In this document: positions 30,514 through 48,199 of the stretch, piece by piece
Position numbering within the stretch: the stretch's first letter is position 1
Layout of the letters: every line of letters begins with the position of its first letter
Assembly: GCF_013410405.1 (NCBI RefSeq)
Contig: NZ_JACCFK010000001.1
Location: 4,836,001 to 4,900,000 of the forward strand
DNA: 64,000 bases
From: Amycolatopsis endophytica
GTDB taxonomy: Bacteria > Actinomycetota > Actinomycetes > Mycobacteriales > Pseudonocardiaceae
Direction of reading: 5' to 3'
Made by a program: the position numbers and the translations under genes
Notes under the pieces: generated by a model
The model's input: only the letters and a program-made list of their open reading frames with translations
What the model was told of the DNA's origin: nothing
Database searches by the model: none

Positions 30514-30969
30514 TCAGGCGCGTTCGGCCTTCCGCAACCCGCCGTCCGGCGTCCACCACTCGACCACCAGCATCGTCGCCTCGGGATCGAGGTGGGTGTG
30601 CACGACTTCGGTGATGTCGGCGCGGAAAAGGTCGCCTTCGGGGCCGTCGGTGATGGGCCCGGCGGGGACCGCCCGCCCGGCGATCTTCGCCTCACCGGGC
30701 CACTCCGCTTCCGCACCGTCGACGGGATCGACGGTGGCGCTGTGCAACGCGAACCGCGGCTCGCGAAGCAGATCCGCGCCCTTGCGGGAGCCCGGCATCG
30801 ACCCGAAGGTCAGTTCGCCGCCCTCGAACGCCGTTTCGATGCCGGAGATCCGCGGGCCACCGTCCGCCCGCACGGTGGCGATCGTCTGGTGCTTGCGCGC
30901 GTCGAACAGCGCCCGTACCGTCCGGGCGAACCGCGGCACCGCCTCCTCGACATCACGCCACGCCGTCAC
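30514..30969 (-). CDS. Pyridoxamine 5'-phosphate oxidase-like protein
   Basis: A 151-residue split-barrel protein of the PNPOx/F420-binding superfamily. Typical parts are [25 protein letters not shown], the [20 protein letters not shown] segment and the C-terminal [10 protein letters not shown] strand. Such proteins bind FMN, F420 or heme; which one is not clear here. The GTG start overlaps the GH13 gene stop by GTGA, so it is translated after a carbohydrate enzyme, an odd pairing. Confidence 0.87.
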
Positions 30970-33215
30970 GCGCCCATCGTCGCACGATCCACGTCCGGGG
31001 TGGTGACCAGCAGCGACATGCCCTGGTGCGGGTCGAGGTCGAGGCTGAAACTGTGCAGGTCGTCGACCACCGCCACCGGATCGCCCGCGAACATGTCGCG
31101 GATTTCGCCGCCGGGCGGCAGCCATCCGGACCGGACGGTGCCCGACACCGGCTCGGCGCGGAAGTTCAGCACCGTCAGCTGCACCTGGCCCGCCGTGGCC
31201 AGCTCGTGCACCATGACCAGCAGTCCCTTGTGGGACACGTCCGGGATGTCGACCTGACGGCTGGTCGCGATGCCGTAGTGGCCGCGCACCGCCAGGATCG
31301 CCTGCAACTGCCGTAGGAAACTCGTGTCGTCGTCGAGCTGGTCGGGGATCGGACCGTAGAGGCTGCGGCCACGCGGCATCCCGGCCTGGGACTTCGACGC
31401 CTCCGGTGCGACGCCCATGAGATCGTGGGCGGCGCGGTGGATCCAGCGGGTGTCGCCGCCCGCGATCAGCTCGCCGACCTCACCGGCGGGCAGCGTGAGC
31501 ATGCCGCACAGGTCCCACCCGGACAGCGCGAACACACCGGGCTGCAATGCGTTGAACATCGCCAGCAGCAGGTGCGCGCGCCGGATCCGGTGCACGTCGG
31601 TGCCCTCGCCGATCGAGTCCAGGCTCGGGAAACCCAGCGTGGCGGCGATGATCGTCGCGGTCGTGCACGCGATGCCGTTCGTGGTGAAGATCCGGTTGTA
31701 CGGGTGGTCCGGGCCGGTCAGCGCCCCGATGAGGTCCGCCCGGATCCGCCCGGCCAGCTCGCCGCCGGTGACCTCCTCACCCTTGTAGTGGTAGACGTCG
31801 TCCTGGTGCCCGGTCGCCCAGTGCACCAGCTCGTAGGTCAGCTCGTCGTGGTTCTGCAGCGCGTGCACCAGCGACGCGGGCTCGACGCCCAGATCCAGCG
31901 AGCTGCGCAGCGTCAGTCGCAGGAACTCGGTGTCCCCGGTGGCCAGCGCGTGCTGGTAGGCGGGCCGGTTGATGAAGTCGTAGGACAGGTCCGCGCCCGC
32001 TTCCGAGGTGACCCGGATGTCGTCGATGGTCAGGTTCAGCTCCTGGAAGGTGAACCCGCCGACCTTGCGGACCATGCTGCCGATCAGCTGGTTCGCCGCC
32101 TCCGACAGCGGATGCCCCTCCGACCACGCGGGCAGGCCCTCGGCGCTCTTCTCCACGCCGAGGAAGCCGTTGGCGTCCAGGCGGAGCCCGCCCGAGCCGA
32201 GGTCGGCCAGCGAGTGCAGGGCGTCGCCGATGACCAGGCGCATGCCGGCGAACGACGGGTCCAGCCAGTTGATCGAGGGCTGACCGTCCTTGAAGTAGTG
32301 CAGATACACCCACCGGCGGCGCACCCCGTCCGGTCCGGCGACCGCACGGGTGACGCTCCAGTTCGTCTCCTTCACACCTTCGGCGTAGAAGATCACGCGC
32401 TGCAGCGGGCCGATGATGTAGCCGGCCTTGTCCAGCCAGTCCTCGCACACCGCGTCGATGTTCACCGAGTCGCGGCCGGGCGGGACCTCGGGCAGGTGCT
32501 CCCAGTCCTCCTCCTCGATCTCGACCATGTGGTAAATGCCGGGGTAGTCGCCGACGTTCATCTCGGCGAGGCGGAAGTCGGCGCCCTTGCCGGTGTGGCC
32601 GGGCACGACGTCGTCGATGATCGTGCCGCCGTGGAAGGTCGCCATCCCGCACATGGCACGGAACTCGGCTTCGGTGCCGAACGTCGGATCCAGTTGGGTG
32701 CTGATCCGGTCGAAGTGGCCGTCGACGCTCGGGGTGTACTCCCAGCCCTGGATGCCGCCCGCCCGCTTGACCGGTCCGGTGTGGACGGCGTCGATCCCGA
32801 TGGTGGCGAACGCCTTCCACAGGTCCTCGTCGGCCAGCGCGGCCAGGAACGACTCGCCGGGCCGGGTGATCAGCGAGATCGGGTACGCGGTGAACCACAC
32901 CGACGCGGTTTCCACGGCGTGCCGCGACGCCGGGTGGGCGTAGGGGTTGCGCCACATGGTGCCCTGGCCGGAGAACTGGCGGCTGATCTCGTTGGCGTCG
33001 GCCAGCATCGACTGGCTGCGCAACCACTCCACGTACGCCGGGTTCCCGCCGTCGGCCGGGCCGTCGCGGGTGACCGACCGCCGCGTGAACGGCCACCGCA
33101 CGCGCGGACGGTGCCGCAGACTGCGCGGCCGCGCGGGATGCCGGTACTCCTCGTAGCTGATCTCACTGGGCTGGTGCGGGTGCTCCTCGTCCCCGGGATC
33201 CCGTTCGTCGTCCAC
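30966..33215 (-). CDS. GH13 alpha-glucosyl enzyme, trehalose-synthase-like
   Basis: A 749-residue glycoside hydrolase family 13 enzyme. After a ~55-residue basic/acidic N-terminal tail the (beta/alpha)8 barrel holds the nucleophile Asp in [10 protein letters not shown], the acid/base Glu in FTFQELNLT and the transition-state Asp in QNHDELT. The C-terminal domain ([16 protein letters not shown]) is the usual beta sandwich. Length and motifs resemble maltose alpha-glucosyltransferase/trehalose synthase relatives, but specificity is uncertain. The GTG start follows GGGGAGAG. It is cytoplasmic. Confidence 0.85.
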
Positions 33216-33282
33216 TGCACTCTCCCCGGACCCGCGTGGCGGGTCGATCGCCGACCGCCCGAGCGTACTTCGATCGGCTTCC

Positions 33283-34446
33283 TCATGCCCGCTTCGATCC
33301 GCCGACCACGGGCGCGAGCAGCGTCGCCGCGGCGACGAGGACGAGCACGACGATCATCGCGTGCCGCAGACCGTAGGCGTCGCCGAGGAATCCCAGCGCG
33401 GGCGGGCCGACGAGGAACGCGACATAGCCGACGGTGGCGGCGAGGGAGACCCGCGCGGTCGGGTCCGGTCCGGAATCGCCCGCCGCCGACAGCGCCACGG
33501 GGAACCCGAGCGAAGCACCCAGCCCCCACAGGACGACCGCGGAGCCGGCGACGACCTGGTTGTCCACGAAGATCACCAGTGCCAGCCCGGCGTCACCGGC
33601 GATCGCGCTCGCCCGCATGACCGCCGCCCGCCCGTAGCGGTCGAGGAAGAACCCGCCGATGAACCGCCCCGCCGTCATGGAGGCGGCGAAGACCGCGTAG
33701 ATCGCCGAGCCCAGCGCCGGGTCGAAACCGTGACCGTCGACCATCACCAGCGGAAGCCAGTCGTTCGCGGTGCCTTCGGCCAGTGCCATCGCGAGCACGA
33801 GAGCGCCGATCAGGAGCAGGCGGGAGTCCTTCCACACCGCCTGGGCCGTCTTCGGCGCCGAGGACTTCTCATGGCGGCCGACCTCGCCCGGGACGTGCCG
33901 GATGGCGAGGGCGAACACGGCGACGCCGAGGACGCCGACCGTCACCAGGTGCGCGGCGACGGAGAAGTCCGCCGCGGTGAGCACGATGCCCGCCGTGGCG
34001 CCGATCGTGGTGCCCAGGCTGAAAAACCCGTGCGCCGCGGGCAGCACCGAGCGGCCCACGACCCGTTCCAGCGCGGCGCCTTCGACGTTCAGGGCGACCT
34101 CGCCGCCGCCCATGCCGAGCCCGAACAGGAAGAGCCCGGCGGCGACGAGCGGGCTGGACGCGAGCGCCCCGCCCAGCCCGATCAGCGGCATGCTGACGAT
34201 CACCCCGAGCGTGCCCGCCATCGCGACCGGGCGCGCGCCCAGCCGTGCGACCAGCGCGCCGGAACAGAGGATCCCGCTCATCGAGCCCGCGGACAGCCCG
34301 AACAGCACCAGCCCCATTTCCGCCGTGGACGCGCCGAGCAGGTCCCGGATGGCCGGGGTGCGCGTGACCCACGACGAGATGGCCAGTCCCGGCAGGGCGA
34401 AGAGCGCGTACAGCGCGGATCTGCGGGCGCGCGTGGCGGTGTCCAA
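33283..34446 (-). CDS. MFS transporter
   Basis: A 387-residue major facilitator with about 12 helices; the motif A-like [16 protein letters not shown] and [16 protein letters not shown] lie in the expected loops, and the central cytoplasmic loop is around [16 protein letters not shown]. It resembles the YbjJ-like sugar/drug MFS group. The TTG at 34446 is chosen because GGAACGGAG precedes it; the TTG at 34479 overlaps the operator. It is divergent from a TetR gene that probably represses it. Confidence 0.87.
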
Positions 34447-34470
34447 GGGGTCTCCGTTCCTCGTGGCGTC

Positions 34471-34488
34471 TGTGTACAAACGTACACA
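34471..34488. promoter_or_regulatory. TetR operator, perfect inverted repeat
   Basis: TGTGTAC and GTACACA are perfect arms around AAAC. The site lies between the MFS start (34446) and the TetR start (34524), so the TetR protein most likely controls both genes from it. Confidence 0.75.
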
Positions 34489-34523
34489 CTTCGGTAGGAT
34501 CGTTCACGACGGCAGGGAGGGGC

Positions 34524-35081
34524 ATGGCTGGGACGAGACGGGTCGCCAACGATCCGGGACGCCGGGAGCGCATCCTCGACGCGGCGCTCGACGTGATCGC
34601 CGGGCACGGGGTGCACAAGACGACGCACCGCCGCATCGCCGAACGCGCACAGGTGCCGCTCGGTTCGCTGACCTACTACTTCGACGGCCTGGAGGCGATC
34701 TTCGAGCAGGCGTTCGCGCGGTTGTCGGAGCTGATGTCGCAGCGCTACCGGGACCGGCTCGCCGCCGCGCGCGACGCGGGCGAGGCGTGCGAGGTGGTCA
34801 CCGACCTCATCTGCGGGCCGGACTACGCCGGCTCGCGCGAGGTGGTGCTGCTGTTCGAGATGTACTCCTACGCCAACCACAACCCGGCCGTGGCCGACAT
34901 CGCGCGGCAGTGGCTGTTCCGCAGCCGCGATGCCCTGGAACGACACTTCCCGCCACGGGCCTGCCGGGCGATCGACGCGCTGGTCGAGGGCTGGCCGATG
35001 CACGAGGTTTTCGAGCGGGCGCCACTGGAGCGCGCCGCGGTGCTGGCCACGGTGACGGCGATCGCCGAGCACGTGTCCTGA
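34524..35081 (+). CDS. TetR-family regulator
   Basis: A 185-residue repressor. The N-terminal DNA-binding domain reads RERILDAALDVIAGHGVHKTTHRRIAERAQVPLGSLTYYF, with the SLTYYF end of the recognition helix. The C-terminal domain is helical and unassigned. A perfect palindrome lies 36 bases upstream of its ATG, next to the divergent MFS gene. The acyl-ligase-like gene starts 19 bases after its stop and may be co-transcribed. Confidence 0.92.
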   Translation: MAGTRRVANDPGRRERILDAALDVIAGHGVHKTTHRRIAERAQVPLGSLTYYFDGLEAIFEQAFARLSELMSQRYRDRLAAARDAGEACEVVTDLICGPDYAGSREVVLLFEMYSYANHNPAVADIARQWLFRSRDALERHFPPRACRAIDALVEGWPMHEVFERAPLERAAVLATVTAIAEHVS

Positions 35082-35100
35082 CCCGGGTACGGTCCGGGGC

Positions 35101-36510
35101 GTGGCTTCGCAGAGTGCCTTCCTGACCGCCGTGCTCGCTGCCCTGGCCCGCGGCGGGGACGACGTGCTGTTCGGCGGCGACGCTCCGGTGACCTACCGCG
35201 AGGCCCGTGATGTGTTGTTCCGCCTGCACGCGGGCCTCGGCGATACCGGCGTGGTGGCCGTCGACCTGGCGAACCGGCCCGACACCGTGCTCGTGCAGCT
35301 CGCGGCGATGCTGCGGGGCGCGCGTGTGCTGCTCGTGGCGGCCTCGGCGCCCCGCGCGGACCAGCTCGCCGCGGCGGCCGCGGCCGGGGTCACCACCGTG
35401 GTCACCGACCGGCCCGGCGCATGGTCCGGCGACGACGTCCGGACACCGGCCGACCTCGACGGCGAGCCGGTGCCCGTGGTGCTGCCCGCCGCGGTGGACG
35501 TGCTCTTCCCGACCGGTGGCACCACCGGCGTGCCGAAACTCATCCGCCACAGCGGGATCTACGACGGTATGGCGCACATCTTCACGCCGTCACCGTCGCA
35601 GCGCGAGCGGGTGCTCGTGGTCGCCCCGCTGACCCATCTGACCGGCCACGCGAGCGTCGTCGGCGCGCTGCTGCGCGGCGACTCGGTTTTCGTCCACAAG
35701 GGATTCGACGCCGGCGCGGTGCTCGACACGATCGGACGGCACCGGATCACGTCGCTGTCGCTGACCCCGCCGCGCCTGGCCGCGTTGCTCGACCATCCGG
35801 CGCGCCCCGGCACCCGGCTCGACAGTGTCCGGTCCCTCTCGCTGGGCGCCGCGCCGTTGCCGCCGCACCGCTTGGCGCAGGCGCTGGAGGTGTTCGGGCC
35901 GGTCGTCGGGCAGGGGTACGGCCTCACCGAGGCGCCCATGATCGCGAGCATCTCCGCCGCGGAGCTGGCCGGGCGCCCCGACCGGCTGTCCTCGGTCGGC
36001 CGGATCGTGCCGGGCATGGAAGCACGCACCGTCGACGGCGAGGTCCAGGTACGGGGACTGTCCATGATGGACGGATACCTCGGCGCGCCGCCGGTCGGCG
36101 ACGGCTGGCTGCGCACCGGCGACCTCGGCCGGTTCGACAGCGAGGGCTACCTCCACCTGCTCGACCGGGCCGACGACGTCGTCGTGCTGGGGGAGCACGG
36201 CACGAAGGTCGCGCCCGCCGTGGTGGAGTACGCCCTGGCGGCCCACCCGTGCGTGCGTGACGCCGCGGTGTTCGGTCTCCCCGGCGACGACGGACCCATG
36301 CTGCACGCCGTGGTGGTCGCCGACGGCCCGGTCAGCGCCGACGAGATCCGGAACCACGCGCGAACCACCTTCGACCGCGACCACTACGTCCCGGCGACGG
36401 TGGAGTTCGCCGACGCGCTGCCCCTGACCGGCGCCGGCAAGGTCGACAAGCGGGCCCTGCGCGCGGCGAGGACGGGCCGGCACGCGGAGGAGCCCGCCGA
36501 CGAGAAGTGA
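35101..36510 (+). CDS. Adenylate-forming ligase (ANL superfamily)
   Basis: A 469-residue ANL enzyme, slightly short. The P-loop is FPTGGTTGVPK, the acyl-adenylate loop GYGLTEAPM, then GWLRTGDLG, hinge LLDRADDVVV and the C-terminal catalytic Lys in LTGAGKVDKRAL. It should form an acyl adenylate and usually a CoA thioester. GTG start. It follows a TetR gene and has no carrier-protein domain or linked thioesterase, so the substrate is unknown. It may be part of the TetR/MFS-regulated unit. Confidence 0.87.
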   Translation: MASQSAFLTAVLAALARGGDDVLFGGDAPVTYREARDVLFRLHAGLGDTGVVAVDLANRPDTVLVQLAAMLRGARVLLVAASAPRADQLAAAAAAGVTTVVTDRPGAWSGDDVRTPADLDGEPVPVVLPAAVDVLFPTGGTTGVPKLIRHSGIYDGMAHIFTPSPSQRERVLVVAPLTHLTGHASVVGALLRGDSVFVHKGFDAGAVLDTIGRHRITSLSLTPPRLAALLDHPARPGTRLDSVRSLSLGAAPLPPHRLAQALEVFGPVVGQGYGLTEAPMIASISAAELAGRPDRLSSVGRIVPGMEARTVDGEVQVRGLSMMDGYLGAPPVGDGWLRTGDLGRFDSEGYLHLLDRADDVVVLGEHGTKVAPAVVEYALAAHPCVRDAAVFGLPGDDGPMLHAVVVADGPVSADEIRNHARTTFDRDHYVPATVEFADALPLTGAGKVDKRALRAARTGRHAEEPADEK

Positions 36511-36704
36511 GTGCGCGCTTCACCTGGCCGGAGCAACGCAGGGACTCCGACGGCGGTACCCATCGTGCCTCTTCGGCTCGACTGAACGGACCCTTTCCCG
36601 ACTTCACGTGGAAATGACAGAAGTCTTCCCTCGTAAGGCGGCAGACACGATCGACTCCAACCGGTTTCTTGGGGATGACAGATCATGTCACGACGGGAGA
36701 CGGT

Positions 36705-39700
36705 ATGCAGGGGAATCGCCGGATCGGCAATGCGCGGGGCTCCTACGATGTCGATGTCGTCATCTCGGACTTCGGTCGTGCCGTGACTCGCAAGCTCCGC
36801 ACGGGTCAGGGGTCGCCCGAAAACCATCTCCGCGGACCGTTCGAAAAGATGGTGGCCGCCCTCGCCGCGGGCCTGGGATTGACGATCACCACCATTGGCG
36901 AGACACAGCTGCCCGATCTCGCCATCCGGCCGGACTACGCGATCGACGTCAACGGCGCCCGCGTCGGATATGTCGAGTTGAAAAGACCCGGTCATGGAGT
37001 GCCGGGAACCTGGTCGAGGCCGGCCAAGCGTGACCGTGATCAGTGGGAGAAGCTCCAGCTGTTACCGAACGTCCTCTACTCCGACGGTGAGCAGTTCGCG
37101 CAGTACAGCTTCGGGAAGTTGCAGAGGGAAGTCGCGCATCTGGAACCCGGGCTGACTCATGCCGGCGGAAGACTGCACGCGGTGGGAAGCGGTTTCGCGC
37201 GCGTCATGACCGACTTTCTCTTGTGGGAGCCGACCCGGCCGCGCACGCTGAACGAACTCGTCCGCATGGTGTCGAGACTGTGCCGGCTGCTTCGCGACGA
37301 CGTGGCGGCGGAGATCACGCGCGAACAGGCCGGGCTGTCGGAGCTGCGCACGTTCAGCAGGCTCGCGACGGACTGGCGTCAGGTCCTGTTCCCGAATCTG
37401 ACCGATGCGCAGTTCGCCGACCAGTACGCCCAGACCATCACTTTCGCGCTCCTGCTCGCTCGTGTCGAAGGCGTCAGTTTCCCGGGCCGGTCGATCGGCG
37501 AGATCGCGCGGCTGCTGGGCAAGAAGCACTCCTTGATGGGACGCGCGCTGGCCGTGCTGACCGACCAACCGGACGAAGAGCACAGTCTCGCGCTCACCAC
37601 GATGCTGCGGGTTCTGAGCGTGGTGGACTGGGCGGAGTTTCCCGATGACTCGTACGAGATGCTGTACGAAGACTTCCTGATGGCGTATGACCCGTCGCTC
37701 CGCCGGAAAAGCGGAGTCTATTACACGCCGGCGTCCTTGGTCTCGTTCATGACCCGGTTCGTCGACGACGTACTTCGCGAGCGGTTGGGCCGGCGCCTCG
37801 GTTTCGCCGAACCTGACGTGATCGTGGTCGATCCCGCCATGGGGACCGGAAGCTTTTTGGCCGAGGTCGTGAACACCGTCGCTGCCACGGTCCGGGATGA
37901 CGAGGGGCCGGGTGCGGCTGCCCCTCGCCTCCGCGAGTTGGCAGGCCGCCTGATCGGTTTCGAGAACCAGGCTGCGCCGTACGCTATCGCGGAGTTGCGG
38001 ATGCACAGCTTGCTGAAGAAGCGCCACCGCGCCGAGGTTCCCAGGAGTGAGCGGCGGTTTCTCGCCGACACCTTGGACGATCCCGATGCGCAGACACTGC
38101 CGATCGGGTCGATGTACGAGGCGATCGACCGGTCGAGGCGTGGCGCCAACCTGGTCAAGCGTGAGGAGCCGGTGATGGTCGTGATCGGCAATCCGCCCTA
38201 TGCCGACAGGGCCAAGGGCACGGCGAAGTGGATCGAGACCGCCACCACCGCCAAGACCGTGCCGAGTCTGCTCGCGTTCCGCAAACCCGGAAACGGACGC
38301 CTTGAATACGTGCTGTCGAACGCCTATGTCTACTTCTGGCGCTGGGCGACGTGGAAGGCGTTCGATGCGCACCCTGGCCACCCGGCGGGAGTGGTGGCCT
38401 TCGTGTGCCCGGCCGGGTTCCTTTCCGGTCCTGGTTTCGCCGGCATGCGTGAGTACCTCCGTCGCACCGCGGACGAGGGCTGGATCATCGATCTCACCCC
38501 GGAAGGTCATCAGCCGCCGATGAACACCAGGTTCTTCCAGGGCAATCAGCAACCGATCTGCGTGGCGGTCTTCATCCGCCGAGGAGAACCGGATCCGGGC
38601 GCTCCGGCGCTCGTCCGGCGGACGTCCGTCGAGGGAACGACGGAACAGAAGACGGACGCGCTGGCGACGCTGACCCTGGATGGAGCCGGATGGGACGAGT
38701 GTTCGAGTGGCTGGAGCGAGCCATTCCAACCGGGCGGTCCGGGTGCCTGGACGGCCATGCCTTCGGTGGCTGATCTTTTTCCCTGGACGATGCCGGGGGT
38801 GAAACCGAACCGGACGTGGGTGTACGCACCGGATCCCGGCACTCTGCGGAAGAGATGGTCCGTCCTCACGCAGGCGCGGCCGGAGGACAGACCCGCTCTG
38901 CTCAAGGAAACGCGGGATTCCCAGATCGGCGCCGAAAAGCCCGCCGTTCCGGGCATGGCAGCCCATCGCGGAACCCTTCTCGACGAGACCGGTCCGTGCC
39001 CGGCGCTGACGCGTGTCGCCCACCGGCCGTTCGACCGGAAGTGGGTGATACCCGATGCGAGGCTGCATGACAGGCCGCGACCGCCGCTGTGGGGAACGGC
39101 GTCGGCGCGGCAGATCTTCCTGGTCGAACAACACGCTCATCCGATCACGGATGGCCCAGCTCTTCTGTTTTCCGCCCTGATCCCCGACATGGACTGTTTC
39201 ATGGGCCATCACGGCGGCCGCGTCGCCGCCCTCTACCGCGATCGGCCGGGCACGATTCCGAACCTCGCACCCGGGTTGCTCGATCTACTGGCACAGGAGT
39301 TCGACCAGACCGTCGAGCCGGCCGATCTCCTCTCCTACGTTGCCGCGGTGACGGCGCACCCCGGGTTCACCCGTCGTTTTGCCGGCGAGCTCAAGGTGCC
39401 CGGGATCAGGATTCCGATCACGCGGCGGCGACGTCTGTGGAATGAAGCGGTGCGCCTCGGCCGTGAAACGATCTGGCTCCACTCCTTCGGCGATCGTTGT
39501 GCCGATCCGGCCGCAGGCCGCGGCGGCATCCCGAGAATGACCACTGATGGCCCGGTCGTGCGAAGACCCATCCCGGACGACGAGGACGGCATGCCGGAGG
39601 TCGTCGATTACGACCCGCGAACCCGGACCCTGCAGGTGGGCCAGGGAGAGATTTCGCCGGTGTCTCCGGAGGTCATGACCTACCGGGTGTCGGGAACCCT

Positions 39701-40007
39701 CGTGGTCAAGCACTGGTTCGGCTACCGGAAACGGAAGCCGACCGGGGTCCGGTCCTCGCCGCTGAACGACATCACCGCCGGCACGTGGACCGCGGACATG
39801 ACCACCGAGCTGGTCAACCTCCTGCACCTCCTTGGCCGGTGTGTCGAGTTGGAACCGGACCAGGACAGGGTGCTCGACAAGGTCATGAACGGGCCGCTGT
39901 TCACGATCGATGACCTGGAGACGGCGGGGATCCTGCCGGTACCTGCCGCGGCGCGAAAAGCCCCGGCGACGCAGCAGGAGGCCGACCTGTTCTCAGCGGA
40001 CGAGTAG
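36705..40007 (+). CDS. Single-chain restriction-modification enzyme (type ISP/IIG-like)
   Basis: An 1100-residue protein. The N-terminal nuclease shows a PD-(D/E)xK pattern (Pro76-Asp77, then Glu91-x-Lys93 in VELKRP). After a helical linker comes an N6-adenine methyltransferase: GVYYTP (337-342), motif I DPAMGTGSF (376-384), motif IV NPPY (496-499). The C-terminal ~450 residues look like the type ISP target-recognition region. No helicase motifs are seen. It would both cut and methylate DNA. Of three in-frame starts (TTG 36669, ATG 36675, ATG 36705) only the last has a good site, GGGAG. Base use is lower in GC than neighbours (37 of 60 at 37081-37140 against 45 of 60 at 41641-41700), so transfer is likely. 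Confidence 0.9.
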   Translation: MQGNRRIGNARGSYDVDVVISDFGRAVTRKLRTGQGSPENHLRGPFEKMVAALAAGLGLTITTIGETQLPDLAIRPDYAIDVNGARVGYVELKRPGHGVPGTWSRPAKRDRDQWEKLQLLPNVLYSDGEQFAQYSFGKLQREVAHLEPGLTHAGGRLHAVGSGFARVMTDFLLWEPTRPRTLNELVRMVSRLCRLLRDDVAAEITREQAGLSELRTFSRLATDWRQVLFPNLTDAQFADQYAQTITFALLLARVEGVSFPGRSIGEIARLLGKKHSLMGRALAVLTDQPDEEHSLALTTMLRVLSVVDWAEFPDDSYEMLYEDFLMAYDPSLRRKSGVYYTPASLVSFMTRFVDDVLRERLGRRLGFAEPDVIVVDPAMGTGSFLAEVVNTVAATVRDDEGPGAAAPRLRELAGRLIGFENQAAPYAIAELRMHSLLKKRHRAEVPRSERRFLADTLDDPDAQTLPIGSMYEAIDRSRRGANLVKREEPVMVVIGNPPYADRAKGTAKWIETATTAKTVPSLLAFRKPGNGRLEYVLSNAYVYFWRWATWKAFDAHPGHPAGVVAFVCPAGFLSGPGFAGMREYLRRTADEGWIIDLTPEGHQPPMNTRFFQGNQQPICVAVFIRRGEPDPGAPALVRRTSVEGTTEQKTDALATLTLDGAGWDECSSGWSEPFQPGGPGAWTAMPSVADLFPWTMPGVKPNRTWVYAPDPGTLRKRWSVLTQARPEDRPALLKETRDSQIGAEKPAVPGMAAHRGTLLDETGPCPALTRVAHRPFDRKWVIPDARLHDRPRPPLWGTASARQIFLVEQHAHPITDGPALLFSALIPDMDCFMGHHGGRVAALYRDRPGTIPNLAPGLLDLLAQEFDQTVEPADLLSYVAAVTAHPGFTRRFAGELKVPGIRIPITRRRRLWNEAVRLGRETIWLHSFGDRCADPAAGRGGIPRMTTDGPVVRRPIPDDEDGMPEVVDYDPRTRTLQVGQGEISPVSPEVMTYRVSGTLVVKHWFGYRKRKPTGVRSSPLNDITAGTWTADMTTELVNLLHLLGRCVELEPDQDRVLDKVMNGPLFTIDDLETAGILPVPAAARKAPATQQEADLFSADE

Positions 40008-40033: not shown

Positions 40034-41071
40034 TCACCTGCGCGGTGCGGCCGTGGATTCGCGTACCACCAGGCGCGGTGGGAGTGCCACGGCGCGTGGT
40101 TCCCGGTCCAGGACCTCCACGCGCTCGACGGCGGCTTGCACGGCGAAACCGGCCATGCCGGGGATGTCCTGGCGGACCGAGGTCAGCACGATTCCCGGCA
40201 GGCGGGCGATCCGGGAGTCGTTGTAGCCGACGAGGGAGAGGTCCCGCGGCACCCGCACACCGGCCCGCACCATCACGTCGAGCAGGCCCACGGCGGATTC
40301 GTCGGCGGCCGCGACGACCGCGGTCGGCAGGCCGTCGCGCAGGAGTTCCCGTCCGGCGCGGGCACCGTCGTCCTCGGTGTAGCCGCCGGTGACCACCCGG
40401 AGGTGACCGGACAGGCCGTGGGCGCGCATCGCCTGCTCGTAGCCGATGCGGCGTTCGCGCGCGGCGGGCAGGTCGTCGCCGTCGACGTGGGCGATGTCGC
40501 GGTGCCCGAGGGAGACCAGATGGTCGACGGCCTGCCGGATCCCGTCGGCGTCGTCGCTGCGGACGACGTCGACGTTGCCCCCGGTGAGCCCCCGGCCCAC
40601 TTCGACGACCGCGACCTCCGCCGACACGGCGCGCAGTGCGCGGTCCCGTGGTTCCGGGCCGATGACGATCAGGCCCTCGCAGCGGTAGCGGAGCAGTTCG
40701 TCGATGACGTGGTCGTGGTCGCGATCGGGCGTGACGGCGCCCAGCACGAGGTGCCGCTCCAGCTCGCGCACCAGCGGGAACAGGTGCTCGACGAACTCGA
40801 CCTCGAAGGGACGGCGCAGGTCGAACACCACGCCCAGGTGGTAGGTCCGGTTGCTGCGCAGCGTCCGGGCCAGCGAGTCGGGGCGGTAACCGATTTCGGC
40901 GGCGGCGTCGAAGACGCGCTGGCGGGTCGCGGCGGAGGCGCCCTCCTTGCCGCGGAACACGAGCGAGACCAGTGCCCGCGAGACACCCGCCCGTTCGGCG
41001 ACGTCGGACATGGTGGGCTTGCGGCCCCGGCTCGACGCGCGGCCCTTCCGAACCGGCTCAATCCCCGTCAC
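40034..41071 (-). CDS. LacI-family regulator
   Basis: A regulator of about 345 residues. After a basic N-terminal tail the HTH is PTMSDVAERAGVSRALVSLVFRGKEGAS with the hinge helix at YRPDSLARTLRSNRT. The periplasmic-binding-like core holds CEGLIVIG, VAAADESAVGLL and LVGYNDSRIARL. It normally senses a sugar or cyclitol. It is divergent from the Moc-like oxygenase operon and a large palindrome lies between them, so it is the presumed repressor. GTG at 41071 has GGAAAGG seven bases upstream; GTG at 41077 is the alternative. Confidence 0.92.
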   Translation of the reverse strand: MTGIEPVRKGRASSRGRKPTMSDVAERAGVSRALVSLVFRGKEGASAATRQRVFDAAAEIGYRPDSLARTLRSNRTYHLGVVFDLRRPFEVEFVEHLFPLVRELERHLVLGAVTPDRDHDHVIDELLRYRCEGLIVIGPEPRDRALRAVSAEVAVVEVGRGLTGGNVDVVRSDDADGIRQAVDHLVSLGHRDIAHVDGDDLPAARERRIGYEQAMRAHGLSGHLRVVTGGYTEDDGARAGRELLRDGLPTAVVAAADESAVGLLDVMVRAGVRVPRDLSLVGYNDSRIARLPGIVLTSVRQDIPGMAGFAVQAAVERVEVLDREPRAVALPPRLVVRESTAAPRR

Positions 41072-41113
41072 GCTCACCCCTTTCCGGCTCCGACGGCCAG
41101 GTTACCGGCCCTC

Positions 41114-41173
41114 TTGACAGCCACCGTGGCGACGTTCATCATGCTTCTAGATCGAGATACTATCTCGTTCTAG
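41114..41173 (+). promoter_or_regulatory. Promoter with 27-bp LacI-type operator
   Basis: A perfect TTGACA (41114-41119) is followed at 17 bases by CATCAT, a usable -10. Just downstream, 41147-41173 is a 27-base palindrome: CTAGATCGAGATA, a central C, then TATCTCGTTCTAG, with 12 of 13 positions paired. It overlaps the expected transcription start of the desaturase-like gene (ATG 41188), the classical place for repression by LacI. Confidence 0.75.
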
Positions 41174-41187
41174 TAGAGAGGCGCGGG

Positions 41188-42270
41188 ATGCGGAACAAGG
41201 ACAGGCTGGCGCGCTACAGCCTCACCGGCCCGGAGGCGGCGCGCGCGGTGGAAGCCGGGCTCGCCGACGGCGACTGGTTCCGCAGCGCCGTGCCGCGCAA
41301 GCGGATGAAGGAGCTGATGCGCCGTTCGGACTGGCCCGGTCTGCGGGACACCGGGCTCTGGCTCGGCCTGATGATCGTCGCGGGCGGGCTGGGGATCTTC
41401 TTCTGGGGAAGCTGGGCGGCGGTACCGTGCTTCCTGGTCTACGGCGTGCTCTACGGGTCGGCTTCGGACTCACGCTGGCACGAGTGCGGGCACGGCACGC
41501 CGTTCCGGACCCGGTGGTACTCGCAGGTCGTCTACCAGCTGGCGTCGTTCTTCATGATGCGCGAGCCCACCGTGTGGCGCTGGCAGCACGCGCGCCATCA
41601 CACCGATACCCTCATCCTGGGCCGGGACCCGGAGATCGCCGTGATGCGGCCCGCCCGGCTGGCGCGCCTGCTGGCCAACCTGGCCGGACTGGTCGACGTT
41701 CCGGTCGCGCTGTGGGCGATGGTGCGGCATTCGGCGGGGCGGCTCGACGCCGAGGAACGCGTGTTCATCCCGGAATCCGAGTGGCACAAGGTGTTCCGCA
41801 CCTCGCGGATCTGGCTGGCGATCCACGCCGGCACGATCGCGGCGTGCTTCGCGTGGGGCAGTGTCCTGCCGGTCGTGCTGATCGGCGGCCCGCGGATCTA
41901 CGGGACGTTCCTGCACGTCGTCTACGCGGTGACCCAGCACGCCGGGATGGGGGAGAACGTGCTCGACCACCGGCTCAACACCCGGACCGTCCACATGAGC
42001 CGGATCCACCGGTTCCTGTACTGGAACATGAACTACCACGTGGAACACCACATGTTCCCGATGGTGCCCAGTCACCGGCTGCCCGAGCTGCACGAGGAGA
42101 TCAAGCACGATCTCGCCCCGGCCTACCCGTCGTTGTGGGCGGCCTACCGCGAGATCGTCCCGGCCGTGCTGCGGCAGTTGAAGGATCCCACGTTCTACGT
42201 CCGCCGCGAGCTCCCGCCGGGAGCCGCCCCGTATCACCCGCGGTCCGACGGACGCGCGCAGGCTCACTGA
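41188..42270 (+). CDS. Diiron desaturase-like oxygenase, MocD-like
   Basis: A 360-residue integral-membrane diiron enzyme. Histidine boxes are His98-x3-His102 (HECGH), HARHH (134-138) and HVEHH (284-288), with an extra ligand region at TQHAGMGENVLDH. Two to four membrane segments surround them. The gene is followed at once by a Rieske ferredoxin and a ferredoxin reductase, the arrangement of rhizobial mocDEF, where MocD with its electron chain removes the O-methyl group of a rhizopine. Fatty-acid or hydrocarbon hydroxylation is the alternative. The LacI regulator favours a sugar-like substrate. Confidence 0.87.
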   Translation: MRNKDRLARYSLTGPEAARAVEAGLADGDWFRSAVPRKRMKELMRRSDWPGLRDTGLWLGLMIVAGGLGIFFWGSWAAVPCFLVYGVLYGSASDSRWHECGHGTPFRTRWYSQVVYQLASFFMMREPTVWRWQHARHHTDTLILGRDPEIAVMRPARLARLLANLAGLVDVPVALWAMVRHSAGRLDAEERVFIPESEWHKVFRTSRIWLAIHAGTIAACFAWGSVLPVVLIGGPRIYGTFLHVVYAVTQHAGMGENVLDHRLNTRTVHMSRIHRFLYWNMNYHVEHHMFPMVPSHRLPELHEEIKHDLAPAYPSLWAAYREIVPAVLRQLKDPTFYVRRELPPGAAPYHPRSDGRAQAH

Positions 42271-42283
42271 GGAGGGAACGCCG

Positions 42284-42598
42284 ATGTCCCGGTGGATCGC
42301 CGCGTGCGCGGCCGACGACGTCGACGACGAGGACGTCGTCCCGTTCCGGCACGAGGGCCGTGACTACGCGATCGTGCGGTCGCCCGCGGGTGACTTCCAC
42401 GCGATCGACGGCCACTGCACCCACGAACGCGAATTGCTGTGTGACGGGCTGGTCCTGGGTTCCACGATCGAATGCCCGAAACACAACGGGCGCTTCGACT
42501 ACACCAGCGGCGAGGCGCTCGGCGCGCCGGTCCTCGTGGGCCTGCGCACCTATCCGGCGCGCGTGCAGGACGGGACCGTCCACATCGAGATCGACTGA
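42284..42598 (+). CDS. Rieske [2Fe-2S] ferredoxin, MocE-like
   Basis: A 104-residue soluble Rieske protein. Ligands are Cys45-x-His47 (CTH) and Cys64-x2-His67 (CPKH), both in standard context. The size is that of MocE/bacterial Rieske-type ferredoxins of non-heme oxygenases. It starts 13 bases after the oxygenase gene and its TGA shares a base with the reductase ATG, so the three are one operon. It would carry electrons from the reductase to the diiron oxygenase. Confidence 0.94.
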   Translation: MSRWIAACAADDVDDEDVVPFRHEGRDYAIVRSPAGDFHAIDGHCTHERELLCDGLVLGSTIECPKHNGRFDYTSGEALGAPVLVGLRTYPARVQDGTVHIEID

Positions 42599-43812
42599 TG
42601 GCCGGGCCGGGAATCGTCATCGTCGGCGCGGGGGAGTGCGGCACCCGTGCGGCGTTCACGCTGCGGGAGCTGGGGTGCACGGATCCCGTCACACTGATCG
42701 GCGCGGAACCGGCGCCGCCCTATGAACGGCCGCCGCTGTCCAAGAACTGGACGTCCACGCCGATCTGTGACCGGGCGATGCTCGACGACCGCGGCATCGC
42801 ACTGCTCGACGGGATCGCGGTCAGCAGGTTCGATCCGGCCCGCCGGACCGTGGAACTCGCCGGCGGAACGGTACTGGGATACGACCGTCTCCTGCTGGCG
42901 ACCGGGGCGCGGGCGCGACAGCCGCCCCCGCTCGGCGCGCCGGTCCGGACGCTGCGCACCCGGGCGGACGCCGCCGCGTTGCGGCCGGTGCTGACCTCCG
43001 GTGCCCGGATCGGGGTGATCGGAGCGGGCCTGATCGGGCTGGAGGTGGCGGCGTCCGCGGTGGCGCTGGGATGTTCGGTCACGGTGGTGGAGCAGGGTCC
43101 GCGCGCGATGGGGCGTGCCGTTCCGGCGCGGATCGCGGCGGCGGTCGAGCGACGGCACCGCGACGAGGGCGTGCGGCTGCGGTTCGGCACCACCGTCGCC
43201 GCTCTCGGGCGGACCTCGTCCGGGATCGACCTCGCCGGTGACGAGGTGGACGTGGTCGTGGCCGGTCTCGGCGCGGTGCCCGAGACGGCGCTGGCCGCCT
43301 CGGGCGGGCTGGCCGTCCGGGACGGGATCGTGGTCGACGGGCGGTTCCGCACCTCGGCGCCGGGCGTGTTCGCCGCCGGTGACTGCTGCTCGTTCCCGCA
43401 CCCGCTGTACCGGACCCGGCTGCGGCTGGAGTCCTGGCGCGCGGCGCGGGAACACGGAGCGGCCGCGGCGCGGGCGATGCTGGGGCTGGACGACGAGCGC
43501 TACGCCGGTGTCCCCTGGTTCTGGAGCGACCAGTACGAGCTGACGCTGCAGGTGACGGGTCTGCCCGCGGCCGCGGTGGCTGACGTCGTCCGGCCGCGGC
43601 CGGACGGGACGGAGATCTGGTTCGGCCTCGCCGCCGACGGCTCGCTCGTGGCTGCCGCGGGTGCGGGCACGGGCACCACGGTCGCCCGCGACATCCGGCT
43701 CGCCGAACTGCTCATCGCGCGCCGGGCCGCGCCACCACCGGCCGTCCTCGCCGATCCTCGCGCCGGGCTCAAGTCGCTCCTGCGTGCTCCGGAGCCGGCG
43801 CGTCCACGGTGA
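42598..43812 (+). CDS. FAD-dependent ferredoxin reductase, MocF-like
   Basis: A 404-residue reductase. It has the FAD dinucleotide motif GAGECG near residue 10, YERPPLSKNW, a second NAD(P)H Rossmann motif GAGLIGLEVAASA, the VFAAGDCCSFP FAD-site motif, and a C-terminal interface domain (VPWFWSDQYELTLQVTG). This is the BphA4/putidaredoxin-reductase fold. It overlaps the Rieske gene by one base (TGATG) and completes the three-component oxygenase system. Confidence 0.94.
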   Translation: MAGPGIVIVGAGECGTRAAFTLRELGCTDPVTLIGAEPAPPYERPPLSKNWTSTPICDRAMLDDRGIALLDGIAVSRFDPARRTVELAGGTVLGYDRLLLATGARARQPPPLGAPVRTLRTRADAAALRPVLTSGARIGVIGAGLIGLEVAASAVALGCSVTVVEQGPRAMGRAVPARIAAAVERRHRDEGVRLRFGTTVAALGRTSSGIDLAGDEVDVVVAGLGAVPETALAASGGLAVRDGIVVDGRFRTSAPGVFAAGDCCSFPHPLYRTRLRLESWRAAREHGAAAARAMLGLDDERYAGVPWFWSDQYELTLQVTGLPAAAVADVVRPRPDGTEIWFGLAADGSLVAAAGAGTGTTVARDIRLAELLIARRAAPPPAVLADPRAGLKSLLRAPEPARPR

Positions 43813-43826
43813 GGGACACGCTCGTC

Positions 43827-44377
43827 TCAGGCATCGCCGAACCACACGGGCAGCCGCACGGCCGGGTCCCGCGGGTCCTTGCCCACCCACGCCACGTGCC
43901 CGTCCGGCCGCAGCAGCACCGCGGGCACGTCCAGTTCCGCACGCACCTCGACGACCTGGTCGACCCGGTCCGCCCAGCCCGCTACCGAAAGACGGCCCGG
44001 TGCCCGGCCGCGGATCCGCGCCGCCGGTTTCCAGCCCAGGTTGACCACGTCCTGGACAGCGCTCGGGGCGGGCGCGCCGATCCGGTGCCTCCCGTCCCCG
44101 GGTGGCATGGCGCCGAACCGCAGCTGGGTCCGGCGCACCCTGGTGACCACCGCGGGCACCGTCTCCGGATCGGCGGTCACCGCCACTTCGCCGAGCAGCG
44201 TGTCCACTCGGGATGGTGCACGGGGAAGCCGGCACCGAGCAGCTTGCCCAGCGCGAGGAACCGGTCCAGGATCCCGCGCTGGTCCGGCACCTCCACGCTG
44301 CGTGCGTGCTGGCCGAGCGCCCGCACTTCATCGTGCGCCGGTACCGGCACCGCGCCGGACGCGCCGACCGGGGTAAC
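43827..44377 (-). pseudogene. FAD-dependent aromatic monooxygenase, C-terminal remnant
   Basis: The end encodes a thioredoxin-like C-terminal domain of the PheA/TetX type (LDVPAVLLRPDGHVAWVGKDP). Further upstream, in another frame, DEVRALGQHARSVEVPDQRGILDRFLALG matches the FAD-domain N-terminal region of the same family. The two parts are brought together by a large internal deletion and at least one frameshift near 44207. The catalytic FAD core is missing, so it is not functional. Confidence 0.78.
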
Positions 44378-44414: not shown

Positions 44415-47143
<2,729 letters not shown>

Positions 47144-47155
47144 TTCGTTGCATCG

Positions 47156-47193
47156 CGAGCCCGGCCGGTCCCTGATGGGATCGGCCGGGCTCG
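47156..47193 (+). terminator. katG terminator hairpin
   Basis: CGAGCCCGGCCG pairs perfectly with CGGCCGGGCTCG; the inner bases extend the stem to about 17 pairs around a TGAT loop. It lies 12 bases after the katG stop. Confidence 0.85.
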
Positions 47194-47935
47194 TCCCGTT
47201 TCCGCGCGGCCGTCTCCCGCGGGTGATCGATCCGGTGTTCCCGGACAGTCCGCTCGACCGGTGCGAAGCGCTGGAGCCACGCCTGGGCTGCGCGGTGAGC
47301 ATCAAGCTCGAAACGGCGAACCCGGTCCGCAGCTTCAAGGCCCATGGAACCGAACTCGTCGCGAGCGCGCTCGCCGGAACCGGTTCGCGGGCCGTGGCGT
47401 GCGCCAGCGCGGGCAACCTCGGCCAGGCCCTCGCGTGGTCCGGCCGCCGCCGGGGGATCGAGGTCACCGTGGTGGCTTCCCGCGCCGCACCGACCGTCAA
47501 ACTCGACCGCATCCGCGCGCTGGGCGCGGCCCTGGACCTCGTCGACGGCGACATCGAAGCGGCCCGTGAGCGCGCGGCCGCCCTCGCCCGGCGGGAGGGC
47601 ATCCGGCTGGTCGAAGACAGCCTGGACATCGACCGGCACGATCGACACCATCACCGACGGCGCCGCCGGCCGCCACCCCATCCCCGAGGTGCTGGACGAC
47701 CGGCGCCAGGTCGCCGACGACGTGGTCCTGGTCCGGGAAGCGGCGATCCTGACCGGAATGCGGATGCTGCTCGACCACGCGGGCCTCGTCGTCGAACCCC
47801 TCCGCCGCCCTCGGCATCGCGGCGATCCTGGAGAACCGCGAGCGCTTCGAGGGCCGCCACGTGGCCACGATCATCTGCGGCAGCAACGTCGACGCGGACG
47901 CTTACCGTCGCTGGACCGCGGCCGGGAGGCCGTGA
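47175..47935 (+). pseudogene. PLP-dependent threonine dehydratase/synthase-like gene, decayed
   Basis: The first part encodes a PLP enzyme N-terminus with the cofactor Lys context NPVRSFKAHG and the SAGN-like segment CASAGNLGQALAW. After DSLDID the frame is lost with material missing. TIDTITDGAAGRHPIPEVLDD continues in a second frame, and SAALGIAAILENRERFEG to the stop in a third. A deletion near 47640 and a shift near 47800 explain this. The true start is uncertain because the first codons overlap the katG terminator. Confidence 0.8.
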
Positions 47936-47968
47936 CGCCACGCGTGCCGCACCGTCCACAGCGGACGC

Positions 47969-48199
47969 TCAGGTTCCGGGCCCGAGCGCGCCCGGGAGGA
48001 GAGCGGCGACGGCGGCGCGGTGGGCGGGCGTGTCCTCCCACCGCGGCTCGCGTCCGGCCTCCACCACCCCGAAACCGGCGTGCACCAGCACCCGCGCCTG
48101 ACGCCCGTCGAGGTCCGGGCGGACCGCGCGCAGGTGCTGTTCCCACACCGCGATGTGCTCACGCCGCGCGACCAGCGGCTGCCGCAGGGACCGGGGGGT
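47969..48199 (-). pseudogene. TetR-family C-terminal remnant
   Basis: About 75 residues (EHIAVWEQHLRAVRPDLDG, RQARVLVHAGFGVVEAGR, then EDTPAHRAAVAALLPGALG and a stop) match the C-terminal helices of a TetR regulator. No DNA-binding half is present: the upstream side runs straight into the end of the molybdopterin subunit gene. It is a broken leftover. Confidence 0.6.

What the first reader, a model, noticed from the sequence alone, without database searches (positions are those of the whole stretch)
40034..43812. LacI-controlled MocD-MocE-MocF-like oxygenase cassette
A diiron desaturase-like protein with HECGH/HARHH/HVEHH boxes, a Rieske ferredoxin and a FAD ferredoxin reductase form one tight operon, divergent from a LacI regulator. 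Rhizobial mocDEF uses the same three-part logic to demethylate rhizopine (an O-methyl inosamine). A LacI regulator normally reads sugars or cyclitols, which fits a methylated sugar or inositol better than a fatty acid. A self-contained O-demethylase in an actinobacterium, without the rest of a rhizopine locus, would be little described.
Basis: partly seen in the sequence, partly recalled or inferred. Interest (0 to 1): 0.72.

Follow-up and report, generated by a model that had tools for sequence, protein, structure and literature searches.

The report
LacI-controlled MocDEF-type cyclitol demethylase cassette
An actinobacterium carries a small, apparently self-regulated set of genes related to the rhizobial enzyme complex thought to strip a methyl group from methylated inositols; its relatives often keep it beside inositol-eating genes, but this genome seems to lack that pathway, which makes its use here a puzzle.

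Summary
A LacI gene diverges from a MocD-like diiron oxygenase, a Rieske ferredoxin and a ferredoxin reductase. A 27-bp operator-like palindrome (41147-41173), unique in the genome, lies just after a promoter-like site. MocD is 60-77% identical to actinobacterial and about 55-61% to proteobacterial relatives, including one beside a curated MocR. The LacI groups with other moc-linked actinobacterial LacIs, not with 23 LacIs of its own genome. In Pseudonocardia acaciae and some relatives the oxygenase lies inside an inositol (iol) cluster; in rhizobia beside LacI, transport and one-carbon genes. An O-methyl-cyclitol demethylase is the best reading, untested here.

LacI divergent from mocDEF is already in print for rhizobia, and mocDEF without mocCABR for Pseudomonas syringae. 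And the host has no IolD, IolE or IolG over curated cut-offs, whereas all 11 other mocD-bearing genomes among 390 searched of its family have IolD. So: a new member of a known kind in an unexplained metabolic setting.

The parts
40034..41077 (-). LacI/GalR-family regulator, divergent from the oxygenase operon
   Evidence: PF00356 51.7 bits, PF13377 114.4 bits; in a 15-row clade (itself included) of moc-linked actinobacterial LacIs, SH-aLRT 99
41114..41142 (+). promoter-like TTGACA-17-CATCAT
   Evidence: 10 of 12 consensus bases; mean 0.1 in shuffles; consensus match only
41147..41173 (.). operator-like 27-bp palindrome CTAGATCGAGATA-C-TATCTCGTTCTAG
   Evidence: core unique in the genome; CG-centred LacI-like palindromes lie upstream of mocD in eight loci of relatives
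41188..42270 (+). MocD-type membrane diiron oxygenase
   Evidence: PF00487; ten His each conserved in 96 of 96 MocD-type rows, itself included; about 55-61% identical to proteobacterial MocD-type proteins
42284..42598 (+). MocE-type Rieske ferredoxin
   Evidence: PF00355 61 bits; TIGR02377 130.6 bits, cut-off 136.15, so just under
42598..43812 (+). MocF-type FAD/NAD ferredoxin reductase
   Evidence: PF07992 193.7 bits, PF14759 64.9 bits; a match in the same position in 11 of 17 actinobacterial loci

Best explanation
The cassette is a LacI-repressed, three-component O-demethylase for a methylated cyclitol, most likely a plant O-methyl-inositol such as pinitol or ononitol. MocF passes electrons from NAD(P)H to the Rieske protein MocE, which feeds the membrane diiron oxygenase MocD. 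MocD hydroxylates the O-methyl carbon; the hemiacetal falls apart to free cyclitol and formaldehyde. LacI sits on the palindrome over the expected start region and leaves it when the cyclitol or its product binds. Shown here: the genes, the family, the histidines, the operator-like site, and co-conservation with LacI, inositol genes and (in rhizobia) one-carbon genes. Inferred: substrate, demethylation, formaldehyde release, inducer and repressor action.
For: MocD homology to a locus with a curated MocR (743.5 bits, cut-off 650; L054; 57% identical). In P. acaciae (L009) mocD-mocE lie inside a set of iolD, a rhizopine-SBP-like gene, permease, ATPase, iolG-like, lacI, Gfo/Idh, iolG-like and iolE-like genes, with similar sets in L011, L050 and two further relatives, L105 and L110 (L106 is the same genome as L009). 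In L113 a LacI of the window's subclade diverges from a gene over the IolG cut-off (409 bits, cut-off 355) with TTAGAACGTTCTAA between them. Eleven of 11 other mocD-bearing genomes of the family have IolD, against 249 of 378 without mocD. In proteobacteria, 64 of 74 loci have a divergent LacI, 44 of 74 a PanB-like and 15 of 74 a purU-like gene near, as one would expect if a one-carbon unit is released. Outside: R. mesoamericanum mocDEF rose 1.5-2.1-fold with Mimosa exudate, whose most concentrated component is pinitol, though its authors think of rhizopine (PMC5789663, passages).
Against: The host has no IolD, IolE or IolG over cut-off and no rhizopine-SBP over cut-off (best 109 of 420 bits; the P. 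acaciae gene is itself under it, 169), so no route is seen for the freed cyclitol. The window has no sugar transporter, cyclitol dehydrogenase, PanB-like or purU gene beside the cassette. Three loci with mocDEF-lacI (L107, L109, L112; L108 is a near-copy of L107) have unrelated upstream genes, annotated in L109 as alkanesulfonate-type, and no inositol cluster was recognised within about 9 kb. S. ureilyticus (L008) and L050 have no matching LacI despite about 9 kb on each side. Eleven of 11 against 66% is weak because 10 of the 11 are one genus. No assay of an actinobacterial member was found in what I read.
Confidence: 0.6

Rival explanations
1. The same three-component demethylase, but for a methylated sugar or another O- or N-methyl compound outside the cyclitols; LacI reads a sugar.
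For: The host lacks core inositol genes, and its LacI is only 39-50% identical to those of relatives, far enough for a different ligand. Other stand-alone mocDEF-lacI loci (L107, L109, L112) show no inositol genes beside them. In L008 and L104 mocDEF is followed by an aldo/keto reductase and a creatininase-family protein (L104 by clustering with L008).
Against: The window LacI's own subclade (7 rows with itself, SH-aLRT 99) otherwise consists of LacIs beside inositol-type or Gfo/Idh-type genes (in L111 only a Gfo/Idh-type gene was called). MocD keeps the same invariant core across cyclitol-linked loci.
Confidence: 0.22
2. A hydroxylase or desaturase of alkanes, lipids or aromatics that happens to sit beside a LacI gene.
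For: PF00487 also covers lipid desaturases; P. syringae authors left an aromatic role open for mocDEF (PMC5132102, passages).
Against: The best NCBIfam match, the desaturase DesB, is 35.7 bits against a cut-off of 500. The tree puts MocD apart from five own-genome paralogues (support 80, long branches), two of them weakly DesA-like. His-284 is in 96 of 96 MocD-type rows while three of five paralogues have Gln there. LacI and, often, inositol neighbours are conserved.
Confidence: 0.08
3. A recently acquired or idle cassette with no present use in this host: a demethylase whose downstream pathway was never brought along or was lost.
For: No match in 18 other genomes of the genus. None of the left-flank genes tested lies in the 12.6-13.8 kb upstream of fur-katG in six genus members fetched. 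A type ISP restriction gene and a truncated aromatic-hydroxylase end flank it. No iol genes over cut-off.
Against: Reading frames are open, the conserved histidines are kept, and LacI and operator-like site are complete, so little decay is visible.
Confidence: 0.1

Closest known systems
mocDEF of the rhizopine catabolism locus (Rhizobium leguminosarum, Sinorhizobium meliloti)
   Same: Same three gene types in the same order; MocD 57% identical to the one beside a curated MocR (L054); same invariant histidines
   Different: No mocR, mocA, mocB or mocC recognised beside it; a LacI and not the GntR-type MocR adjoins; actinobacterial host
LacI (FixV-type)-divergent mocDEF clusters of rhizobia (R. 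etli pA and others; PMC3538637)
   Same: LacI divergent from mocDEF, cyclitol-like context
   Different: LacI of another clade; rhizobial sets often add a TIM-barrel epimerase, sugar ABC transporter, PanB-like, purU or IolG-like genes; none was seen beside the window cassette
mocDE inside the iol cluster of Pseudonocardia acaciae and relatives (L009 = L106, L105, L110)
   Same: MocD 73-77% identical; LacI in the same subclade
   Different: There the oxygenase is embedded in an inositol cluster with transporter and a PhyH-family dioxygenase, and no reductase gene was found adjoining; here lacI-mocDEF stands alone
Stand-alone mocDEF of Pseudomonas syringae (PMC5132102)
   Same: mocDEF without the rest of the moc locus, substrate unknown
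   Different: Sits beside a second xylose-isomerase gene; no LacI link is stated in the passages read

Membership tests
MocDEF three-component oxygenase | MocD-type PF00487 oxygenase with the conserved histidines | tested here: met
   Ten His each in 96 of 96 MocD-type rows, 94 distinct; 55-77% identity
MocDEF three-component oxygenase | MocE-family ferredoxin at the curated TIGR02377 cut-off | tested here: not met
   130.6 bits against 136.15; the two relatives scanned pass with 140.1 and 143.0. A near miss of 5.6 bits, so I call the cassette MocDEF-like
MocDEF three-component oxygenase | FAD ferredoxin reductase next in the operon | tested here: met
   PF07992 and PF14759, overlapping the Rieske gene by 1 nt
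MocDEF three-component oxygenase | O-demethylation of a methylated cyclitol | not testable with these tools
   Needs an enzyme assay
Rhizopine catabolism locus (moc) | mocR, mocA, mocB and mocC beside mocDEF | tested here: not met
   Neighbours are LacI, a type ISP restriction gene, a hydroxylase remnant, fur and katG; no rhizopine SBP over cut-off in the genome. The genome was not searched for mocR, mocA or mocC
Inositol (iol) catabolism | IolD, IolE and IolG in the genome over curated cut-offs | tested here: not met
   Best 229.3 of 715, 36.7 of 290 and 128.5 of 355 bits; genome 96.6% complete. P. acaciae's IolE-like (157.8) and IolG-like (313.6) proteins are also under cut-off but far above the host's
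Acyl-lipid desaturase | Match to a curated desaturase model over cut-off | tested here: not met
   DesB 35.7 of 500 bits
Alkane hydroxylase (AlkB) | Place in an AlkB clade | not tested
   No AlkB reference rows were in the tree; the NCBIfam scan (E up to 0.001) listed no alkane hydroxylase model
FixV-type rhizobial LacI | Window LacI in the clade of rhizobial moc-adjacent LacIs | tested here: not met
   Separate sets with SH-aLRT 99 and 100, 17 of 71 proteobacterial rows sampled

The most novel reading that the evidence does not exclude
A mobile, self-regulating 'cyclitol ether switch': LacI-MocDEF working in a genome that cannot burn inositol, so that demethylation serves another end, for instance freeing inositol for phosphatidylinositol and mycothiol synthesis, gaining the methyl carbon, or removing a plant osmolyte, rather than rhizopine or inositol feeding.
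Probability: 0.12. Interest if true: 0.6.

Novelty: new member of a known kind. Interest (0 to 1): 0.42.

Why it matters
If right, MocDEF is not mainly a rhizopine system but a wider tool by which soil bacteria, actinobacteria included, open methylated inositols, which are common soluble carbohydrates of legumes and other plants (general knowledge). The nesting in iol clusters of Pseudonocardia and the PanB-like and purU neighbours in rhizobia make the demethylase idea directly testable. A host without the usual iol genes poses a clean question about what the freed cyclitol is for.

Tried and rejected
A profile of 21 MocDs found no convincing relative in the PDB by sequence (best E 0.39, kinase fragments), nor did the single sequence. 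A fold search with a moderate model (mean pLDDT 78.8) gave 2 of 47 matches under E 0.001, chains of chloroplast Ycf2/Orf2971-FtsHi complexes (E about 5e-5, TM 0.54-0.56), whose identity I could not read, so I draw nothing from it. The MocD tree used 29 of the proteobacterial rows, does not resolve the order of the actinobacterial rows, and has very long branches to the paralogues; it held no outside AlkB or desaturase standards. I looked for an inositol-like cluster in the host at C2:788000-820000; it holds TIM-barrel, Gfo/Idh-like and sugar-ABC-like genes (by eye and weak matches), but its IolE- and IolG-like matches are far under cut-off, so I rejected it as an iol locus. Two creatininase-family genes of the host lie elsewhere; one seems to follow mycofactocin-type genes (recalled). 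The window's palindrome pattern was found only in the window's own sequence among the loci held by then. Composition does not mark the cassette as foreign. Paper searches: those for mocDEF and rhizopine gave the rhizobial and P. syringae papers cited and none on actinobacterial mocDEF; those for pinitol or methyl-inositol catabolism, desaturase-like O-demethylases and actinobacterial rhizopine or mocD gave nothing on actinobacterial mocDEF in the listings. Two actinobacterial papers that mention rhizopine only name it as a substrate of Gfo/Idh/MocA enzymes or in a reference (PMC12008989, PMC9603128, passages). That Bahar 1998 assigns 3-O-MSI demethylation to MocDEF is recalled; I saw only its title in reference lists, and it is not held.
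Full report
What is there. The window lies at C1:4836001-4900000 of a 7.2-Mb genome in two contigs. It belongs to the same family as Pseudonocardia acaciae: relative G266 has a contig of the same length (90,236) as the P. acaciae contig and an identical MocD. Four genes match the finding: lacI (40034-41077, minus) and, divergent from it, an oxygenase (41188-42270), a Rieske ferredoxin (42284-42598) and a reductase (42598-43812). Between the two transcription units lie a promoter-like pair of hexamers ending at 41142 and a 27-bp inverted repeat at 41147-41173, 14 bp before the oxygenase start. The repeat's 15-bp core occurs nowhere else in the genome with up to two mismatches. If it is the LacI operator, LacI would control only this cassette and, being in the shared region, perhaps itself.

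What the oxygenase is. NCBIfam lists only two weak matches, DesB (35.7 of 500 bits) and an arginine hydroxylase of guanitoxin synthesis (26.5 of 380). The closest are actinobacterial (P. acaciae 74%, Streptomyces ureilyticus 73%, an Actinomycetota MAG 65%, Janibacter 63%), then rhizobia, other proteobacteria and two actinobacterial MAGs near 56-61%. One of these, R. bangladeshense L054, has a protein over the curated MocR cut-off directly beside mocD, so it is a rhizopine-type MocD by annotation. In 96 MocD-type rows (94 distinct, window included) histidines 98, 102, 134, 137, 138, 251, 261, 284, 287 and 288 are present in all 96. Position 284 is Gln in three of five own-genome paralogues. The tree puts the window protein with actinobacterial MocDs, order unresolved. 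The Rieske protein misses the MocE-family cut-off by 5.6 bits, while the two relatives scanned pass.

Conservation of LacI. Of 17 actinobacterial loci, 12 hold a LacI matching the window's at over 50 bits. L009/L106 are one genome and L107/L108 near-identical. Of the five without, L104, L010 and L012 end within 0.5 kb upstream of mocD; L008 and L050 have about 9 kb on each side. Orientation varies: divergent as in the window only in L103; in L107-L109, L112 and L011 LacI follows the reductase on the same strand; in L111 and L113 it converges; in the iol-type loci it lies 3-4 kb upstream. A tree with 23 other LacIs of the host and 17 of 71 proteobacterial rows puts the window LacI in a clade of 15 rows, itself included, all moc-linked actinobacterial LacIs (SH-aLRT 99); its nearest subclade (7 rows with itself, 99) holds the LacIs of the iol-type loci and one LacI each of L111 and L113. 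One further weak LacI hit, in L103, fell with the proteobacterial rows. The tree is midpoint-rooted. LacI control of mocDEF thus appears to rest on two different LacI subfamilies. Relatives have CG-centred palindromes upstream of mocD (TTGGAGCGCTCCAA in six loci; TTGGACCGGTCCAA in L103; TTGGAGCGGTCCAA in L104) and between lacI and iol-type genes (TTAAAGCGCTTTAA in L009, L105, L106, L110; TTAGAACGTTCTAA in L113; TTGGAACGTTCTAA in L111). None of these was found in L008, L010, L011 or L050. The window's repeat is of another form, though its arm end CGTTCTAG resembles the L113 half-site; this likeness is by eye.

Neighbours in relatives. In P. acaciae the order is iolD, rhizopine-SBP-like (169 of 420 bits), permease, ATPase, an inositol/D-chiro-inositol dehydrogenase-like gene (380 of 540), lacI, Gfo/Idh, an IolG-like gene (313.6 of 355), an IolE-like gene (157.8 of 290), mocD, mocE, a PhyH-family dioxygenase and an SDR. 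The iolD stretch in L009 is cut by the locus end; the whole gene in G266 passes its cut-off. Several of the others are under their cut-offs, so single names are approximate; the set as a whole is an inositol cluster. Similar sets occur in L105, L110 and L011, and L050 has KduI/IolB, an IolE-like gene and an IolC over cut-off. L113 has an IolG over cut-off and a Gfo/Idh gene next to LacI; in L111 only the Gfo/Idh-type gene was called. L107, L109 and L112 share unrelated upstream genes, annotated in L109. In proteobacterial loci a LacI diverges from mocD in 64 of 74, a PanB-like gene is near in 44 and a purU-like gene in 15 (by tblastn against chosen references). The R. etli and Peteryoungia records are annotated with LacI, mocDEF and a ketopantoate-hydroxymethyltransferase gene, the latter also with purU and iolG. 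The one PanB-like protein scanned is far under the PanB cut-offs (132 of 272 and 107 of 208 bits). I read these genes as handlers of the one-carbon unit; this is inference.

The puzzle. In the host family mocD is in 12 of 390 genomes, the host included, and in none of the 18 other genomes of the genus. IolD over cut-off is in 260 of 390, in all 11 other mocD genomes, but not in the host, nor are IolE or IolG. In S. meliloti a functional myo-inositol pathway is essential for rhizopine use (title of Galbraith 1998, seen in reference lists). So the host either uses another route, does not feed on the product, or carries a cassette without present use. Six genus members were fetched around fur-katG; none of the left-flank genes tested (30966-40007) lies in the 12.6-13.8 kb upstream of fur there. 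Two others have the window's AMP-ligase gene at 35101 but none of the other genes tested near it. So the cassette lies in a variable segment.

What is in print. LacI divergent from mocDEF, and the link to inositol derivatives, is described for rhizobia (PMC3538637, passages). The mocD promoter of S. meliloti L5-30 is rhizopine-inducible, with proposed MocR boxes (PMC10107442, passages). R. mesoamericanum mocDEF is induced by pinitol-rich exudate (PMC5789663, passages). P. syringae has mocDEF without mocCABR (PMC5132102, passages). I found no paper on actinobacterial mocDEF in searches; the library lacks most subscription journals.

Verdict. A methyl-cyclitol O-demethylase under LacI control is the best explanation (0.6). 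As a kind it is known; the actinobacterial, partly iol-nested branch and the host without iol genes are what is new.

Noticed in passing
window 43827-44207 (minus): Truncated C-terminal end of an aromatic-ring hydroxylase (PF21274, 35.4 bits) directly after the reductase gene: a possible rearrangement scar.
   Followed up: partly
window 36669-40007 (+): Type ISP restriction-modification enzyme (PF18135) beside lacI, with lower G+C than its surroundings (about 65-67% at 37000-40000).
   Followed up: partly
L088 11694-12503 and 44 of 74 proteobacterial loci: A PanB-like protein, in L088 far under the PanB cut-off, stands near mocDEF, and a formyl-THF deformylase-like gene (purU) in 15 of 74: a possible built-in one-carbon outlet.
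   Followed up: partly
L009 10384-11469 and L103 5388-6521: A PhyH-family dioxygenase (Pfam for L009; L103 by clustering) lies near mocDE; in the iol-type loci it follows mocE directly or closely, and no reductase gene was found there.
   Followed up: no
L008 11793-13600, L104 1039-2825: mocDEF followed by an aldo/keto reductase and a creatininase-family protein (L104 by clustering); the latter family includes keto-inositol hydrolases (recalled), so another cyclitol route is possible.
   Followed up: no
L111 8401-9238, L112 11368-11754: The reductase match is split over frames in L111 and only partial in L112: sequencing errors or decay, not examined.
   Followed up: no
L136 (G000 C2:788000-807999): A cluster with TIM-barrel-like proteins, a protein starting like inositol-phosphate synthases, a Gfo/Idh-like gene and a sugar-ABC-like set (by eye).
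   Followed up: partly
window 47034-48101 (+): An open frame whose residues 71-196 match only the first part of a PLP-dependent enzyme (PF00291 positions 7-134 of 295), after katG: a truncated or frame-broken gene.
   Followed up: partly
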